From the NCBI GenBank assembly GCA_015709715.1, contig CP054184.1, forward strand, positions 2,651,001 to 2,715,000: a DNA stretch of 64,000 nt. The letters are read 5' to 3'. Every line of letters starts with the position of its first letter. The stretch's first letter is position 1. Source of the DNA: Nitrospira sp. Its GTDB lineage: Bacteria > Nitrospirota > Nitrospiria > Nitrospirales > Nitrospiraceae. Below the pieces are notes generated by a model. That model worked only from the letters and a program-made list of their open reading frames with translations, did not search any database and was not told where the DNA came from. Below, in pieces: positions 31,344 to 38,719 of this stretch. The translations under genes were made by a program, and so were the position numbers.

Positions 31344-32102
31344 TCATGCCTCGTGAGGAAGGTTCACGGAAGAACCGGCGCGCGGATGTCCTTCAGATCG
31401 TGGCATCGGCGTTTCCTGCGGCCGGCCCGCACGGCTCAGGAAGAGATTCAGGAAGGCAATAAAAAAACTGCCGCCGACGACCCAGTAGCTGGTCGTGCGA
31501 ATGGTTTTGGTGCCTTCATCGCGCATGTCCTTCGCGACCTCGGCGACCGTTTCAAGCAGCCGATCCAGCGCCAGGCTCACTTGCATCACCTTCGGTCCGC
31601 CGTTATCGGCAGCATGGATTTCGGCTTTGCGCCGCAACTCGGCTGCCTCTTGTGAAGTTCCGGCATTCCATTCCTGCGCCAGAAGATCGACGGTGTTGCT
31701 CGCGACGTGAAAGTATTGATCGAGGCTCTCGCGCACGGCCAGAATATCTTTCTCTTCACTGCGCCCGCTGCGCGACACACGAAGACCGGCGGCGGCATAC
31801 CGATCCACCGCATGCTGAATGCGCGCCCGTTGAGAGGGCAAGGATTCGGTGATGCGCTCAAAGGTCTTCCGGTCCGCTGCCTCCAACGACCGGATGATCG
31901 TATTCCGATACCGGATGACGTCGGCGGAGATATGCGCGAGGTCGGCGGCTCCCAACGTGTACTCCGTGTACATGATGCGCAGGTCCTGGTCGATTCGGCT
32001 GAGGGCCTGGCCGCTGATCCAGCCCAATCCGGCGATGAGAATGCTGATGATCAACTGATTCGTGCTGGGGAAGGACAGCTTCAGTCGCGAGGCCAGTGAC
32101 AC
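31344..32102 (-). CDS. Membrane protein with MCP-like four-helix-bundle sensor, no signalling domain
   Basis: 252 aa. A first transmembrane helix (LIISILIAGLGWISGQAL) is followed by a helical periplasmic domain of about 165 residues (DLAHISADVIRYRNTIIRSLE) of the 4HB_MCP type, then a second transmembrane helix (SYWVVGGSFFIAFLNLFLS) and about 30 basic cytoplasmic residues. No HAMP, kinase, cyclase or methyl-accepting domain follows. It lies at the 3' end of the ABC-like cluster, 115 bp after the last ABC-like gene. Start is GTG 32102. It may be a sensory or regulatory subunit for that cluster. Confidence 0.7.
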   Translation of the reverse strand: MSLASRLKLSFPSTNQLIISILIAGLGWISGQALSRIDQDLRIMYTEYTLGAADLAHISADVIRYRNTIIRSLEAADRKTFERITESLPSQRARIQHAVDRYAAAGLRVSRSGRSEEKDILAVRESLDQYFHVASNTVDLLAQEWNAGTSQEAAELRRKAEIHAADNGGPKVMQVSLALDRLLETVAEVAKDMRDEGTKTIRTTSYWVVGGSFFIAFLNLFLSRAGRPQETPMPRSEGHPRAGSSVNLPHEA

Positions 32103-32217: not shown

Positions 32218-33894
32218 TCAGTCGAGCACAACCCGCCGCTCGACCAGCTGGGCGATCTCGGGGTCATTGGAAACGAAGACCAGAGCCCAGGGTTCTTCCC
32301 GGGAACAGAGCCGGCGTAAGAGCGTCAGTCGAAGGGCCGGTTCGATGTTGTGCAGGCTTCCGTTGAAGATCAGCAGTTTGGGCCGAGTCACGATCGTGCG
32401 GGCGAGCAGGATCCGTAAGATCTGACTGCGGGTGAACGTCGCGCCGTTGGCGGACACCGGGGTTTCCAGTCCCAAGGGTAAGGCGTCGATGTCCTCTTCC
32501 AGTTCGACGAAGCGGATCGCCCAGGTTAGGTCTTCGAACCGGATAGACGGTCGCTGTAGCGAAATATTCTCCTCGATCGTGCCGTCGAACAGAGTCGGAT
32601 GGGTATCCAGCATCAGCCCGCGGCATTGATTGATGTAGTTCAACGGCACGTCGCGGAGGTCAACGTCGTTATAGCGCACGGCCCCGCCAGTCGGACGGGA
32701 CAGGCCTGATAAGATCAACGCGAGCGACATTTTGCTCATGCTGGTCGCCGACAACACGCTGATTTTCTCGCCCGGCAAGACCTCCAGATTGAACGCCCCG
32801 ACGAGCAGCGTCCCGCTGGGGCTCACAAATGAGACCTCCTTGCACGTGAGCCGTACACCGTGGAGTGACGGGTCCGGGAGAGCAGCCGAAATGGGGCCGG
32901 AAAGCTCTTCCTTTGGCAGGTCGAACAGGCGCGACAGTTCGTCGAGCGAGGTGGCGACATAGATGGCCGCATACATCCGGCGGGCCACCGTATCGAGGTT
33001 GAGGAGCAGGGTGCCGACGATGACCTCCGCGGCGACGAATTGCCCGAGGGTGATATCACCGACCGAGAGCAGCCATCCCCCGAGGCCAATCATTCCGCTG
33101 TGGGCAAAGGCTTGGAAGACGACGGCGCTCTTATATTGGGCGCCGCTCAGGATATCCGACCGGATTTTGCGCGCCGCCACGTAGGCTTGGGTGAGGGCGT
33201 CGGTCTTGTTGAGCAGGAGCGGGAGGCTTTCGGTCGATTTGAAGTGCAAGCGGTTGATGCCGATGTCTTGCATCCAACGAAAAGTGCGGTAGTGCAGCCG
33301 GGAGACCTGCTGGGTAATGGCGAGGGCCCCGCGCCCGAAAAAGGTCAACAGAAAGGTGAAGCCTGAGATGACGAGGGCGTTATAGCCGAGGAAGTAGGGA
33401 TGGTACATGATCAGGATCGTCATGCCGATCGTCCCGGACACGCCGACGTTGATGACATCGACCAGCATGGCGACCAAGGCGCGCGGGAGTAACTCCGCCT
33501 CGATGAAGGTGTTGGTCAAGTGCGGGAGAAAGACATCTTCCCGAAAACGCGGCAACGCTTCGGTAAAGGCGACGGTCAGGCGCGCATAGATGCGCTGAAC
33601 GAGAATTTCCACCGCGCGGGATTGGAGCACGCGGAACGCGCCCATGAGCAGCAGCGCCCCCAGCATCACCACCACGAGGGTCACGATCATGATCGGTTGA
33701 ATGGCGAAGGCGAACGTGTTGACCAACTCCTGCACGGTCAGGGGAACGATGAGGGCGAAGAGGCCGATCGCGACGGCGTAGGAGGCGATGATGGCCAGGA
33801 TACGGGACTCGAGCCCGATCAGGAGGTGAAATCGAGCCAGAATGGTCCAGACCGACGGTGTGGGTCGGGATGGTTCGCTGTTTGCGGGCTTCAC
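32218..33894 (-). CDS. ABC exporter-like protein with degenerate ATPase domain (second of pair)
   Basis: 558 aa. About six membrane helices lie in residues 25-300, as in an exporter half-transporter, followed by an ABC-like domain. Each ATPase motif is altered. The Walker A position (382-390) reads SATSMSKMS with no glycine. The Q-loop Gln is missing (LMLDTHPTLFDGT). The signature reads FTRSQ, Walker B reads LLIFNGS without Asp or Glu, and the H-loop has Asn (FVSNDP). The surrounding fold markers (PGEKISVL, LFDGTIEENI, RILLARTIV) are kept. ATP hydrolysis is therefore very unlikely. It is only 3 bp downstream of a similar gene. Confidence 0.85.
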   Translation of the reverse strand: MKPANSEPSRPTPSVWTILARFHLLIGLESRILAIIASYAVAIGLFALIVPLTVQELVNTFAFAIQPIMIVTLVVVMLGALLLMGAFRVLQSRAVEILVQRIYARLTVAFTEALPRFREDVFLPHLTNTFIEAELLPRALVAMLVDVINVGVSGTIGMTILIMYHPYFLGYNALVISGFTFLLTFFGRGALAITQQVSRLHYRTFRWMQDIGINRLHFKSTESLPLLLNKTDALTQAYVAARKIRSDILSGAQYKSAVVFQAFAHSGMIGLGGWLLSVGDITLGQFVAAEVIVGTLLLNLDTVARRMYAAIYVATSLDELSRLFDLPKEELSGPISAALPDPSLHGVRLTCKEVSFVSPSGTLLVGAFNLEVLPGEKISVLSATSMSKMSLALILSGLSRPTGGAVRYNDVDLRDVPLNYINQCRGLMLDTHPTLFDGTIEENISLQRPSIRFEDLTWAIRFVELEEDIDALPLGLETPVSANGATFTRSQILRILLARTIVTRPKLLIFNGSLHNIEPALRLTLLRRLCSREEPWALVFVSNDPEIAQLVERRVVLD

Positions 33895-33897
33895 CGG

Positions 33898-35565
33898 TCA
33901 GCTCAAGAGGATGCGGCGGTCCACGTGGGGGGTCAGGTTGGGATCGTTGGAAACGATGATCAGGGACCAAGGCTCTTCCTTGCTGCAGAGGCGACGGAGG
34001 ATGGTCTCGCGGATGGCGGGGTGCATGTTGTGGAAGGTGCCGTCGAAGATCAAGAGTTGCGGACGGCCCAGAATGGCGCGGGCGATCAGGATGCGCACGA
34101 TGTGGGTGGGCGCGAAGTGGGTGCCCGGCATGTGGACGTGGGTTTTTAACCCGTGCGGCAAGGCATCGACCTCTTCTTCCAGCTCAGTGAAGCGTAGCGC
34201 CCATCGCACATCACTATAGGGGATGTATTCCCTGCCCAAGACGATGTTGTCTTCGAGCGTACCTTCGAACAGGGAAAGTTTGGAGTCCAACACGAACCCG
34301 CGAAACCGGTTCACCGAATCCAGATCCAGATGCCGCAGGTCGACTCCGTTATAACGGATCACTCCGGAGGTAGGAGACTCCAGGCCTGCCAGAATCCGCG
34401 CCAGCGTAGTCTTGGCGGCGGTAGTTTCTGCGTAGATCCCGATCTTTTCGCCGGGCGTGACTTCCAGGTTGAAATCGGCGAACAGGGGCGGACCGCCGGT
34501 CGGGGCGAACGTCAGATCCTTGCACGTCACGCGGATGCCGTGCACGGTTGGGTCGGGGAGTGGGATAGAGAGGGTGGCGGTGTCCTGGTCCTTGGGCAAC
34601 GAGAACAGATGATTCAGTTCGGTCAACGCGGTGAGGAAATAGAAGATATGGCCCATACGTTTGACGACACCGTCGACACTCGACAGGATGCCGTTGACCA
34701 CCACCTCCGCCGCGACGAATTGTCCCAGCGTCAATTGGCCGATCGCCAGGAGCCAGCCGGCGGTGGCGATCAGGCCGCTGTGGGCGATCGCCTGCCAGCC
34801 CAACGAGCTGAGGTATTGTCGAATGAGGATGCTGAATCGGGTTCGGCGCGCTCCCATGTAGGTGTTGAGGAGCTGGTCTGTTTTCTTGATGAGCAAAGCC
34901 TGGCTGTCCGTCGCCTTGAAATGGAGCAGGTTGTAGGCGATCTCCTGGAACCAGTGCAGCGTGTCGTACTTCGCATGGGAGAGATTCAGGTCGGCCTTCA
35001 GGCCACCGTGACTCATCAAAAAGAACACTGCGTTGACGCCCATCAGCAGGATGGCGTTATAGAGTAGGAAGTAGGGGTGGTAAAAGACCAAGATGGTCAT
35101 ACCGACCGCGCCGCCGACGATCACGTTGATCAAATCGACCAGTAACACCGAGATCGCCCGCTGCATCAGGATCGTCTCGACGAAGAGGTTCGCAAAGCGA
35201 GGTTGGAATCCATGGTACTGCACGTGCGGGAGCTGCTGAGCCATCGCAATGGCCACTCGCGCGAAAATGCGCCGTTCCAACACCTCCACCGCGTAATATT
35301 GCAAGGCTCTGAAAGCGCCGACGAACAACAAAGCCGCCACCATGACCGCCGCCAGGGTCACGATGGTGATCGGCTGTAGCGCAAAGGCGAAGGTATTAAC
35401 GAGTTCCTGAACGGTGAGGGGAACGATGAGGGCGAAGAGCCCGATGACGATCGAATAGGAAAAGATCAGCGCCAGGATACGGCGCTCGAGGTGGAAGAGG
35501 AGGCCGAGGTGCCCGACGATTGTGTTGAACAGGCTACCTTGATTAGCGGAATGGTCTTGGGCCAT
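33898..35565 (-). CDS. ABC exporter-like protein with degenerate ATPase domain (first of pair)
   Basis: 555 aa from ATG 35565 (MAQDHSANQG), with AGGAG eight bases upstream. Same architecture as its downstream neighbour and clearly homologous (shared IGLFALIVPLTVQELVNTFAFA near residue 45), so the two are a duplicated pair. The Walker A position (379-387) is AETTAAKTT: Lys-Thr remains but all three glycines are lost. Walker B is LLIFDGTF with no catalytic Glu, the signature is FAPTH, and the H-loop is IVSNDP. No C39 peptidase domain precedes the membrane part. It may form an inactive heterodimer with its neighbour that serves as receptor, scaffold or channel rather than pump. Confidence 0.87.
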   Translation of the reverse strand: MAQDHSANQGSLFNTIVGHLGLLFHLERRILALIFSYSIVIGLFALIVPLTVQELVNTFAFALQPITIVTLAAVMVAALLFVGAFRALQYYAVEVLERRIFARVAIAMAQQLPHVQYHGFQPRFANLFVETILMQRAISVLLVDLINVIVGGAVGMTILVFYHPYFLLYNAILLMGVNAVFFLMSHGGLKADLNLSHAKYDTLHWFQEIAYNLLHFKATDSQALLIKKTDQLLNTYMGARRTRFSILIRQYLSSLGWQAIAHSGLIATAGWLLAIGQLTLGQFVAAEVVVNGILSSVDGVVKRMGHIFYFLTALTELNHLFSLPKDQDTATLSIPLPDPTVHGIRVTCKDLTFAPTGGPPLFADFNLEVTPGEKIGIYAETTAAKTTLARILAGLESPTSGVIRYNGVDLRHLDLDSVNRFRGFVLDSKLSLFEGTLEDNIVLGREYIPYSDVRWALRFTELEEEVDALPHGLKTHVHMPGTHFAPTHIVRILIARAILGRPQLLIFDGTFHNMHPAIRETILRRLCSKEEPWSLIIVSNDPNLTPHVDRRILLS

Positions 35566-35703
35566 GCGCACGACTCCTGCCAAGACCTGATGCAGGGCCC
35601 TCCCTGATGCTCGGCGAGAGCCGTCTCAAGTCAGGAAGGGAGGCGGCGCATGCCGGCTCCCTTCGCATCGGTAAACCCTATCAGAGCACATTCGAAAATG
35701 CCA

Positions 35704-37194
35704 CTACTTGGAAAGGCCGGCGCCGATCCGGTAGTTGACCGGAACGGCGGACGGCTGGCTGCGCGCCCAGGTGCCGGTCGCCCATTGATAGAGGGCCAAG
35801 GCCTTCTGGTAGTCGGCCTTCGCTCGGACTAATTGCATCTCCGAATCGACCGAATTGCGCTCCCGCAGGTTGACGAAGAGGACGCTCGTGGCTCCCATGC
35901 TGAAGCGGAACCGTTCACCCTCCTCCAACGTCTTGGCCATGCGTAGGGATTCGGTCGCTGCGGCCACCCGTTCCTTCGCTCGCTCAATAGCGGAGAGGGC
36001 ATTGTCCACGTCGACCACCACCTGCTGCTCCCGGTATTTCTGTACCAAGACCAAACGATCAGCCTGGGCTTGCGCTTCCAGCACTTCACCGCGGCTTCTC
36101 CGCTGCAGGATCGGCATCCGGAGTTCCACGCCGAAGCGATACCCCAGGCCGAGGACGAACTTTTCCGGCGCTCGCGCCGGAGCGGCTTCCAGGTCGAGGC
36201 TCGGAAGGAGGTTGTTTTTGGCCAACTCCAGGTCGATGTTGTTGATCTTGGCCTCGATGTCGACCTCGCGAATCTCCGGACGGTCGGCCTTCGCCTGTAA
36301 CTTGTCGGTCCGCACGCTCTCCGCCGTGGGGGAGGCAGCGGTCGGCGGGAAGTCCGGAGCCCGTTCGAGCTGAGGGGCGGTTGGGGTCTGCTGTTCCCAG
36401 AGAAACATCGACATCTTGTATTGCTCTTGCTCCAGGACCCGTTGCGCCGCAATGGCGACCTCTCGGCGGCGCTGCACTTCCTGGCCGGCTTCCACCACGT
36501 CCAGCGGGGCGACGGCTCCCGCCTTCGCTCGACCTTCCACCTGTCTCAACCGCTCTTCCGCGACGCCCAGAGCCCGTCGTTGTACGTCGATGAATTTTGC
36601 CGCCGAGACCCAATCCCAGAATTGTGTGGCTGCGGCGAGAAAGAGATCCTGCCGGGTCTGGGAAATCTTGACCTCGGCGCGAGGGTCGGCCAATTCCGAA
36701 CGTTGCAGTTCCGCGTTTTCGGGGTTGATCATGAGCCCTTTGAGAAGCGGCATGAATCCGCCGAGAATGACCTGTTGGTTACCGTTTCCGAACGAGAGGT
36801 CGGGAATCTTGGCATCACCGATCGCCTGTCGAATGCCCGCGCTTCCACGAAAGCCCCATGGATGGCGGGCTTCCACGAGAGTGTCGTTGAAACCGACGCT
36901 TTGTGTCTTAGTCGTGCCCTTTTCAATAAATCGTTCGATCTCCGTGTCGTTGACCACCACCGGCTCGAAGGCCCCCAAGGCCTTGAGCATTTTCCCGCGT
37001 GCCGAGACCTTTTCGGTGCCGGCTCCCTTTAAGAGCGGATGGGAGCGATCGATCCAAGCCAGGACTTCATTGAGGGAGAGCGGAATGGGCGGAAGTGGCT
37101 TCGATTTGGCCGCCTCTTCGGCGGCCATAGTGTCGTGGGGCAGCCACGTCAGCGCACAGGCAGCCATGACACCGATCCATACATGCATTTTCAT
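35704..37194 (-). CDS. TolC-family outer-membrane factor
   Basis: 496 aa from ATG 37194 with GAAAGGAG upstream. A signal peptide (VWIGVMAACALTWLPHDTMAAEE) precedes two long helical outer-membrane-efflux repeats (LSLNEVLAWIDRSHPLL near the N-terminus, ELAKNNLLPSLDLEA in the second). TolC-type trimers form an outer-membrane exit duct together with HlyD-type adaptors. It lies between the HlyD gene and the ABC-like pair, which gives the gene set of a type I secretion machine without an active ATPase. Confidence 0.88.
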   Translation of the reverse strand: MKMHVWIGVMAACALTWLPHDTMAAEEAAKSKPLPPIPLSLNEVLAWIDRSHPLLKGAGTEKVSARGKMLKALGAFEPVVVNDTEIERFIEKGTTKTQSVGFNDTLVEARHPWGFRGSAGIRQAIGDAKIPDLSFGNGNQQVILGGFMPLLKGLMINPENAELQRSELADPRAEVKISQTRQDLFLAAATQFWDWVSAAKFIDVQRRALGVAEERLRQVEGRAKAGAVAPLDVVEAGQEVQRRREVAIAAQRVLEQEQYKMSMFLWEQQTPTAPQLERAPDFPPTAASPTAESVRTDKLQAKADRPEIREVDIEAKINNIDLELAKNNLLPSLDLEAAPARAPEKFVLGLGYRFGVELRMPILQRRSRGEVLEAQAQADRLVLVQKYREQQVVVDVDNALSAIERAKERVAAATESLRMAKTLEEGERFRFSMGATSVLFVNLRERNSVDSEMQLVRAKADYQKALALYQWATGTWARSQPSAVPVNYRIGAGLSK

Positions 37195-37282
37195 GAAAGG
37201 CACTCCTTTCTCTATGTGCAAGGCGAAGAGTGAGCGTTCGGGGCGTCGGGAGTCCCGGCATGATTGCCGATGAGGAGGCGTG

Positions 37283-38719
37283 CTACTTGGCGCCTCGCCC
37301 GGCTTTTGGCAAGAGCGTATCGATCAGGCTCGGAGGGCGTTCCTGGTAGTCGGGCGGAAACAGGTTGAACCGGCGCCACAGTTCGTACCAGAGGGGGACG
37401 CGGTTGAGGATGACCCAGCCCATGGCTTTGGTGCCTTGACGAACGTGCTCTTGCGGGGGCCATGGACGTTCTTCCAGGTCGGGGACGACCCAGAAGCGAA
37501 AGTTCCCTTTGCCGTCGTCCACCTGGTCGATGACCTTGATGACCCCGTTATAGGTGCCCGCCATGATTTCCGGCCAAGCCGGAAGCGGAATCGCGGGGAT
37601 CCCATAGAACAGAATTTTGACTTTGCGTCCCACGTTCAGCAGGGGGGCGTCGATGCCGTCGGCAACCATTTCGATGGCCCTGTCCGTGCTGTTGGGCGAG
37701 ATCCGGACCAATTTTTCCCCGGGGCGCACCGTTTCGCCGGCTCCGGCCTGAGCCATCTTCACTACGGTTCCGTCGATCGGTGCCAGGATACGGCTGGCGA
37801 TGCGCCGTTGATTGGCATTGGACAAGCGCAACGACACATCCGCCAATTGATCGGCTGCTCGGGCCGCTTCCGCGATCGAGGCATCACGCGCCGCCTCGGC
37901 ATCCAATAGCCGCTGGAGTACTTCGGCGCTGACTTGCTCCCGTCCGAAGCTCAGGGCCCGCATCCCCTGTTCGGCTGCGCTGAGGTTGGCTTGCGCACCC
38001 TGGAGGTCGGCCTTGCTGGCGATGGCGGCTTGGATCGTCAATTCCAATTCGCGCTGCGACACCAGTCCTTGAACGGCGAGCTGCTGATGGCGTTCGACGT
38101 TGAGCTCGGCGGTGGCCACAGCGATCTTGGCCGCCTCGACTTTCTGTCGCGCCTCCCGGACCTTGCTTTCGGCTTCCAACACCCGTGCCCCGGCGGACGG
38201 AACCGCGGCCTTGACGAGGTTCTGCATTTCCTTGATGCGCTTATCCAACTGATCCGCGCGGCTCAAGGCGGCCTTCCGGGTGTCTTCCAGTGCGTGTTTG
38301 CGTTGTTCCAACAAGGTGAGCAGATCGGGCGCCATGAAGTTTGGATCGTAGTCGTCCAGTTCCAGGATGACGTCGCCGGCCTTGACCCGCACACCTTCAA
38401 AGACGTGCCATTTCTTGATACGCCCGGTGATCTGCGACTCCACGTCCTGAGGCCGCTCAAACGGCGTATAGGCGGAGAGCTGACCGGTTACCGTAATGGT
38501 CTGGGTCCAGGGCACGAAGGCGACGATGAGGGCGAACAATGCGACGAGAAGGAGGGCGAGGCGAGAGGAAAACCGCAGTCGTTCGGGAATCTGAACTGCT
38601 TCCCAGGACTGGAGCTTGGTCGATGTCGCCAGGTCATCGACCGCCATTTCGTCCAGTCCGGTGCGCTGGGTGACGAGCGAGCGAAGTCGAATCTTGAGTC
38701 CTTCGCGAATGCGCTGCAC
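37283..38719 (-). CDS. HlyD-family periplasmic adaptor
   Basis: 478 aa from GTG 38719, which has GGAGGG six bases upstream. An ATG pair at 38767/38764 would add 16 residues but coincides with a promoter -10. One transmembrane helix (LALLLVALFALIVAFV) is followed by a biotinyl-lipoyl-like half (VFEGVRVKAGDVILELDD), a long coiled-coil hairpin of about 200 residues, and the returning half (RILAPIDGTVVKM). The last 130 residues contain an extra segment with WPPQEHVRQGTKAMG. It begins the HlyD-TolC-ABC-ABC cluster. Confidence 0.87.
   Translation of the reverse strand: MQRIREGLKIRLRSLVTQRTGLDEMAVDDLATSTKLQSWEAVQIPERLRFSSRLALLLVALFALIVAFVPWTQTITVTGQLSAYTPFERPQDVESQITGRIKKWHVFEGVRVKAGDVILELDDYDPNFMAPDLLTLLEQRKHALEDTRKAALSRADQLDKRIKEMQNLVKAAVPSAGARVLEAESKVREARQKVEAAKIAVATAELNVERHQQLAVQGLVSQRELELTIQAAIASKADLQGAQANLSAAEQGMRALSFGREQVSAEVLQRLLDAEAARDASIAEAARAADQLADVSLRLSNANQRRIASRILAPIDGTVVKMAQAGAGETVRPGEKLVRISPNSTDRAIEMVADGIDAPLLNVGRKVKILFYGIPAIPLPAWPEIMAGTYNGVIKVIDQVDDGKGNFRFWVVPDLEERPWPPQEHVRQGTKAMGWVILNRVPLWYELWRRFNLFPPDYQERPPSLIDTLLPKAGRGAK

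What the first reader, a model, noticed from the sequence alone, without database searches (positions are those of the whole stretch)
32218..38719. Type I secretion-like cluster whose two ABC subunits have lost every ATPase motif
An HlyD-type adaptor, a TolC-type factor and two tandem exporter-type ABC proteins are encoded head to tail, followed by a four-helix-bundle membrane sensor at 31344-32102. In both ABC proteins the Walker A glycines, Q-loop Gln, signature motif, Walker B acids and H-loop His are replaced, yet the fold around them and the frames (558 and 555 aa) are intact and the two copies are still similar. Intact frames with coordinated loss suggest selection for a non-hydrolysing role, such as a signal receptor or an ion-driven or passive envelope conduit. 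All five genes could form one transcript.
Basis: partly seen in the sequence, partly recalled or inferred. Interest (0 to 1): 0.78.

Follow-up and report, generated by a model that had tools for sequence, protein, structure and literature searches.

The report
Type I exporter with a dead motor
Nitrospira bacteria keep a type I secretion-like envelope complex (HlyD adaptor, TolC channel, ABC-exporter-fold inner-membrane proteins) whose ABC subunits have lost the residues for burning ATP in every relative examined, and in one lineage the whole ATPase domain, so it must work without its own ATP hydrolysis, perhaps on an ion gradient.

Summary
The minus strand encodes HlyD-like, TolC-like, ABC-A, ABC-B and a four-helix-bundle membrane protein. 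Both ABC proteins lack the Walker A glycines, Q-loop Gln, LSGGQ, catalytic Glu and H-loop His; they keep the Walker A Lys, and A keeps the Walker B Asp. This is not a decayed singleton. The family occurs in 141 of 197 order-level genomes (two Nitrospirales families). None of 159 complete NBDs has the catalytic Glu, H-loop His, Q-loop Gln, a GG signature, or the first two Walker A Gly. Within the genus dN/dS is about 0.05 (A) and 0.09 (B), with NBD and TMD equally constrained. The fold is that of type I secretion exporters (best match HlyB, TM 0.88). HlyD keeps the TolC-docking RLS motif in 108 of 109 orthologues. Three genomes in one clade lost the NBD entirely; their TMD changes cluster at the intracellular loops where coupling helices lie, while membrane helices stay conserved. 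That parallels SbmA/BacA, proton-driven transporters derived from ABC TMDs. Best reading: a tripartite conduit whose ABC-fold part no longer hydrolyses ATP, with the TMD as working gate. Ion coupling is plausible but untested; substrate and direction are unknown.

The parts
37283..38719 (-). HlyD-type periplasmic adaptor (478 aa), first gene; RLS TolC-docking motif RHQQLAVQGLVS at residues 210-221
   Evidence: TIGR01843 E 1.6e-21, PF13437; RLS motif R and L in 109/109, S in 108/109 orthologues; dN/dS 0.045
38057..38092 (-). codons of the HlyD RLS motif (RxxxLxxxxxxS)
   Evidence: motif defined in PMC3391258
35704..37194 (-). TolC/OEP-type outer-membrane factor (496 aa)
   Evidence: PF02321 E 1.5e-32; dN/dS 0.049; TolC-like gene in 78 of 80 related loci
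33898..35565 (-). ABC-A: type IV ABC-exporter-fold protein (TMD + NBD, 555 aa) with degenerate NBD
   Evidence: motifs; AF2 model pLDDT 84; best PDB match HlyB 8dck TM 0.88; dN/dS 0.047, NBD 0.044
32218..33894 (-). ABC-B: tandem paralogue of A (558 aa, 52% identical), degenerate NBD; present in 23 of 25 genus members, absent in G011 and G015
   Evidence: dN/dS 0.087
31344..32102 (-). two-TM four-helix-bundle membrane protein (4HB_MCP_1), last gene; accessory, no signalling domain found
   Evidence: PF12729 E 7e-9; AF2 all-helical model; in 40 of 80 loci
34408..34431 (-). ABC-A Walker A position (residues 379-386): glycines replaced, Lys385 kept
34285..34287 (-). ABC-A Q-loop position (residue 427): Gln replaced by Asp
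34102..34116 (-). ABC-A signature position (residues 484-488): LSGGQ replaced by FAPTH
34039..34044 (-). ABC-A Walker B D508 (kept) and catalytic Glu position 509 (Gly)
33943..33948 (-). ABC-A H-loop position (residues 540-541): His-Arg replaced by Asn-Asp; D541 invariant in the family
35404..35406 (-). ABC-A Glu54 in TM1: 190 of 191 family proteins (the other a gap), not acidic in any of 14 canonical ABC exporters, kept in the NBD-less variants
34705..34707 (-). ABC-A Glu287 in TM6: 169 Glu and 22 Gln of 191 family proteins; Asn in most canonical ABCs

Best explanation
The locus encodes a tripartite trans-envelope complex of type I secretion architecture (TolC-like outer-membrane channel, HlyD-like adaptor, ABC-exporter-fold inner-membrane dimer) in which the ABC half no longer hydrolyses ATP. 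The transmembrane domain is the working part: an inner-membrane gate or translocator docked to HlyD. The dead NBD persists in most lineages as a structural, possibly ligand-binding, domain that grips the coupling helices, and it can be lost altogether. The most likely energy source is an ion gradient acting through family-specific acidic residues in the helices (Glu54 in TM1, Glu287 in TM6), as in SbmA/BacA and NBD-less MsbA; the alternative is passive, gradient-driven flow. Shown here: motif loss across the family, purifying selection, intact exporter fold, conserved HlyD/TolC partners and docking motif, natural NBD loss with change at the coupling-helix loops. Inferred: assembly into one complex, dimer make-up (A/A or A/B), ion coupling. 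Substrate and direction are unknown. My separate estimates: no ATP hydrolysis by these subunits 0.93, tripartite assembly 0.8, ion-coupled transport 0.35.
For: None of 159 complete NBDs has the catalytic Glu (Gly in 158 and Ser in 2 of the 160 residues read there), H-loop His, Q-loop Gln, a GG signature or Walker A G1/G2. Because all composite-site elements are lost, even pairing with a canonical ABC could not make a complete site. dN/dS is 0.047 for A and 0.087 for B, NBD as constrained as TMD. AF2 model pLDDT 84; best PDB match is HlyB in the HlyB/D complex. HlyD and TolC genes lie in 75 and 78 of 80 related loci; the HlyD RLS motif is complete in 108 of 109, the one exception being a locus that lost ABC and TolC. 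Three f3 genomes carry a 337-346 aa TMD-only protein with no NBD remnant; its states not seen elsewhere in the family concentrate at residues 211-225 (56%) and less so at 106-120 (22%), against 0-20% in the other windows. E54, H163, R136, R240 and R243 are family-specific and kept in the TMD-only proteins. The same genome has a separate canonical T1SS ABC beside an RTX protein. A NhaR-type regulator gene is divergent from the operon in f3. Precedents: SbmA (PMC13316013), NBD-less MsbA (PMC4979069).
Against: No biochemical data; substrate, direction and energy source are unknown. The Walker A Lys is kept in 161 of 188 proteins with a residue there, so some nucleotide or phosphate binding is possible. 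NBDs are under strong selection in the Nitrospira family, so they do something there. Selection on the TMD-only proteins is relaxed (dN/dS 0.24-0.30), and they come from one clade, so NBD loss is a single event. E54 and E287 were placed on helices only from predicted secondary structure; no coordinates were available to show that they line a cavity. A separate ATPase acting in trans cannot be excluded. The ICL1 enrichment (22%) is only slightly above one other window (20% at 61-75).
Confidence: 0.5

Rival explanations
1. The pseudo-ABCs are a scaffold or regulator: they anchor HlyD/TolC, or sense a cytoplasmic ligand through the dead NBD, and transport nothing themselves.
For: NBD residues new to the family are invariant (H512, D541, R519, W533), as in a repurposed binding site. 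Orphan copies without HlyD/TolC exist (C and D), D near histidine kinase and NtrC-type regulator genes.
Against: The NBD is dispensable in one clade. TMD stretches in and around the membrane helices and periplasmic loops are highly conserved, with family-specific charges there. No signalling domain is found in the operon.
Confidence: 0.22
2. Energised in trans: another ATPase, or a canonical ABC half-transporter encoded elsewhere, partners with the pseudo-ABC.
For: The genome encodes several canonical exporter-type ABCs. T1SS-related HlyD/OEP loci with a SecA-like ATPase in place of an ABC have been proposed (PMC4452313).
Against: The signature of the pseudo-ABC is lost too, so neither composite site would be complete with a canonical partner. 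No ATPase gene was seen conserved beside the locus, including the NBD-less loci. Most genera have a single copy, implying a homodimer.
Confidence: 0.13
3. The NBDs bind or hydrolyse nucleotide by altered chemistry, so the complex is still ATP-driven or ATP-gated.
For: The Walker A Lys is kept in most of the Nitrospira family, the Walker B Asp in A of the window, and the altered motifs are themselves conserved.
Against: In family f3 the Lys is replaced as well (STGHRLS, SQRLTVS); the catalytic Glu and H-loop His are absent everywhere; the NBD can be deleted.
Confidence: 0.1
4. Decaying pseudogenes or an assembly artefact.
For: A few lineages do show loss: G170 has an NBD remnant with two stops, and some family f1 genomes have no copy.
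Against: dN/dS 0.05-0.09 with open frames in 24 of 25 genus members; 191 distinct family proteins from many independent assemblies.
Confidence: 0.02

Closest known systems
Type I secretion system (HlyB-HlyD-TolC, LssB, PrtD)
   Same: HlyD-type adaptor with RLS motif, TolC-type factor, ABC-exporter fold closest to HlyB (TM 0.88), genes side by side
   Different: No complete ATPase site in any ABC subunit, no N-terminal C39-like domain, no RTX substrate gene found at the locus, NBD absent in one clade
SbmA/BacA (SLiPT) secondary peptide transporters
   Same: ABC-exporter TMD that works without NBD; NBD loss accompanied by loss or change of coupling helices; conserved membrane glutamates
   Different: No SbmA_BacA Pfam match, sits in an HlyD/TolC operon, most members keep a dead NBD; proton coupling untested
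Heterodimeric ABC exporters with one degenerate site (TM287/288, TmrAB, MsRv1273c/72c)
   Same: Exporter fold with altered NBD motifs; A/B pair possible in this genus
   Different: Here both composite sites lack catalytic Glu, His and signature; most genera have a single copy
SecA_DEAD-associated T1SS-like loci (PMC4452313)
   Same: HlyD/OEP genes in a system without a usable ABC ATPase
   Different: No ABC protein was found there and a SecA-like ATPase is present; here ABC-fold proteins remain and no ATPase is found beside them

Membership tests
Type I secretion system | ATP-hydrolysing ABC exporter | tested here: not met
   by sequence: 0 of 159 NBDs have catalytic Glu, H-loop His, Q-loop Gln or a GG signature; no enzyme assay
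Type I secretion system | HlyD-type adaptor and TolC-type factor encoded with it | tested here: met
   RLS motif
Type I secretion system | ABC-exporter fold of the HlyB type | tested here: met
   model and Foldseek
Type I secretion system | dedicated substrate (RTX type or other) | tested here: inconclusive
   the only RTX protein found in the genome lies beside the separate canonical ABC at 3.21 Mb; a non-RTX substrate cannot be excluded
SbmA/BacA (SLiPT) | Pfam SbmA_BacA or related membrane family match | tested here: not met
SbmA/BacA (SLiPT) | no NBD and lost coupling helices | tested here: inconclusive
   approached only in three f3 genomes; most members keep an NBD
SbmA/BacA (SLiPT) | proton-coupled transport | not testable with these tools
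   conserved acidic residues only
Degenerate-site heterodimeric ABC exporter | one intact composite ATP site | tested here: not met
   motif elements altered in both A and B
Curated T1SS ABC families (TIGR03375, TIGR01842, TIGR01846) | score over the curated cut-off | tested here: not met
   125 bits or less for A and B against cut-offs of 510-726

The most novel reading that the evidence does not exclude
An independent, ongoing conversion of an ABC exporter into a secondary (ion-coupled) transporter inside a tripartite HlyD-TolC complex, with intermediate stages alive today: dead NBD with partial Walker A, dead NBD without the Lys, and no NBD at all. It would be a type I secretion-like complex driven by an ion gradient.
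Probability: 0.3. Interest if true: 0.86.

Novelty: new variant of a known kind. Interest (0 to 1): 0.72.

Why it matters
ABC exporters are defined by ATP hydrolysis. A whole conserved family in an ecologically important group (nitrite-oxidising and comammox Nitrospira) that keeps the exporter fold and its HlyD/TolC partners without any catalytic site makes the question of what the TMD can do alone directly testable. The natural NBD-less variants give ready-made constructs, and the series of stages shows how a primary transporter may become a secondary one, a step so far argued mainly from SbmA. It also warns that annotating such genes as ATP-driven type I secretion is probably wrong.

Tried and rejected
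Decay or singleton: rejected by dN/dS and orthologues. Canonical orthologue of the same family: none among 159 NBDs in two families; the class-level profile search listed no hit outside those two families. Active ABC partner restoring a site: rejected on motif grounds; other ATPases not excluded. Asp144 as a family-specific acid: dropped, because a second alignment shows Asp in canonical ABCs too. Read-through A-B fusion to model the heterodimer: the B rows aligned to the A half, so it was not folded. The careful ML tree did not finish; the quick tree was used only for one-clade statements. Literature searches for this Nitrospira system found no description, within an open-access library only.

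Full report
What is there. The window lies in a 4.16 Mb genome (G000:C1:2651001-2715000) of the genus that holds Candidatus Nitrospira defluvii. On the minus strand, between the divergent purE/purK genes and the convergent pseudouridine synthase gene, lie five genes in order: HlyD-like (37283-38719), TolC-like (35704-37194), ABC-A (33898-35565), ABC-B (32218-33894) and a two-TM four-helix-bundle protein (31344-32102). A and B are 52% identical.

Motif state. Aligned with canonical exporters of the same genome, A and B lack the Walker A glycines, the Q-loop Gln, LSGGQ, the catalytic Glu and the H-loop His; the Walker A Lys is kept in both and the Walker B Asp in A. Over 191 distinct family proteins, 159 with a complete NBD, none has the catalytic Glu, H-loop His, Q-loop Gln, a GG signature, or the first two Walker A glycines. 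The replaced positions are themselves conserved: Gly509, His512 and Asp541 are invariant or nearly so, where canonical proteins have Glu, Ser and Arg. The Walker A Lys is kept in most of the Nitrospira family but lost in family f3.

Not decay. Within the genus, dN/dS (Nei-Gojobori, pairwise medians) is 0.047 for A (TMD 0.045, NBD 0.044), 0.087 for B (TMD 0.086, NBD 0.078), 0.045 for HlyD, 0.049 for TolC and 0.073 for the 4HB protein. The dead NBD is thus as constrained as the TMD. Of 25 genus members 24 have an intact A; G009 has one in-frame stop in a fragmented assembly. B is missing in two members (G011, G015), which keep A and the rest.

Distribution. A-like proteins occur in 141 of 197 genomes sampled in the order, in families f1 (Nitrospira and relatives) and f3; the class-level profile search lists hits in these two families only, and the HlyD protein likewise in 111 of 396 phylum genomes. 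In 80 loci from named genomes, HlyD is nearby in 75, TolC in 78 and 4HB in 40. The core is HlyD-TolC-ABC; the second ABC and the 4HB gene are lineage-specific, and one clade (g10) has three tandem TolC genes. In the quick tree the family is one clade against canonical type I ABCs. N. moscoviensis and N. defluvii carry it.

Natural loss of the NBD. Three f3 genomes (L139 10352-11365, L140 4704-5744, L148 4444-5457) encode only 337-346 aa, ending just after the TMD, with no NBD remnant by tblastn and an unrelated gene starting soon after. HlyD and TolC remain beside them. Comparison with NBD-bearing members shows that states not seen elsewhere concentrate at residues 211-225 (56%), with a lesser rise at 106-120 (22%); most other windows are below 12%, one (61-75) reaches 20%. 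These two stretches are the tips of the two intracellular loops, where coupling helices meet NBDs in exporters of this fold (general knowledge of the fold). The membrane helices stay conserved, although overall selection is weaker (dN/dS 0.24-0.30). So the NBD is dispensable and the TMD is the retained functional part.

Structure and partners. The AF2 model of A (43 sequences, pLDDT 84, pTM 0.70) is a type IV exporter with NBD; the best PDB match is HlyB of the HlyB/HlyD complex, 8dck (TM 0.88), followed by PCAT1, IrtAB and TmrAB chains. The HlyD RLS motif that docks TolC (PMC3391258) is complete in 108 of 109 orthologues; the exception is G068, where ABC and TolC genes are gone from the locus and HlyD stands alone. 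This supports a real HlyD-TolC conduit.

Membrane residues. Against canonical type I ABCs, the family has invariant Glu54 (TM1), His163 (TM3-TM4 periplasmic loop), Arg136, Arg240 and Arg243, and Glu287 in TM6 (169 Glu, 22 Gln of 191), all kept in the TMD-only proteins. An Asp144 signal in one alignment was not reproduced in the second and is dropped. Positions come from the predicted secondary structure only.

Mechanism. ATP sites are composite (PMC7756269), and Walker A, Walker B Glu, signature and H-loop are all altered, so no pairing of A, B or a canonical half-transporter would give a complete site. Two published precedents show that exporter-type TMDs can work without ATP: SbmA, proposed to descend from ABC transporters that lost NBDs and coupling helices, uses protons through a glutamate ladder (PMC13316013); NBD-less MsbA carries out delta-pH-driven efflux (PMC4979069). 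I therefore favour an ion-coupled or passive TMD gate under an HlyD-TolC conduit. Weak context fits ion physiology: a NhaR-type regulator gene is divergent from the operon in several f3 loci and lies near it in two g10 loci, and DabA/DabB-type inorganic carbon pump genes follow the NBD-less loci. The genome has a separate canonical T1SS ABC beside a 1692-aa RTX protein, so this complex is an addition, not a substitute.

Membership and novelty. It is not a type I secretion system in the strict sense (ATPase motifs tested and not met) and not a SbmA/BacA member (no family match); it looks like a tripartite exporter that has met SbmA's energy problem. No description was found in the searched open-access papers.

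Limits. No biochemistry; energy source, substrate and direction remain inferred or unknown. dN/dS is a simple counting estimate. Taxon labels f1 and f3 are the tool's anonymous families.

Noticed in passing
L009:6488-8191 (G000:C1 2607493-2609121) and L070-L080: Third paralogue C of the dead ABC, without HlyD/TolC beside it, in a conserved neighbourhood with a glycosyltransferase, ArnT-like, TauE/SafE-like and TatA-like genes.
   Followed up: partly
L066-L069: Fourth paralogue D, orphan, in two of four loci directly beside a histidine kinase gene and in all four near an NtrC-type response regulator gene.
   Followed up: partly
L149:7316-8605 (G068): HlyD alone between the pseudouridine synthase and purE genes; ABC and TolC genes gone, and the only HlyD with an altered RLS motif (S to L).
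   Followed up: partly
L130, L131, L136, L138, L219-L235: In one Nitrospira clade the single TolC gene is replaced by three tandem TolC-like genes next to ABC and HlyD.
   Followed up: no
L139-L148, L128, L131: NhaR-type LysR regulator gene next to the operon; DabA/DabB-type genes follow the NBD-less loci.
   Followed up: partly
window 31344-32102 and alignment A4: The 4HB protein has strikingly conserved segments (DLRIMYTEYTLGAADLAHIS; RYAAAGLRVSRSGRSE) with no known partner.
   Followed up: partly
L195, L237: Contigs labelled Armatimonadetes and Acidimicrobiia carry the family; probably mis-binned Nitrospira contigs.
   Followed up: no
G170:C220:10135-10854 (L270): NBD remnant with two in-frame stops: real decay of the family in one lineage.
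   Followed up: no
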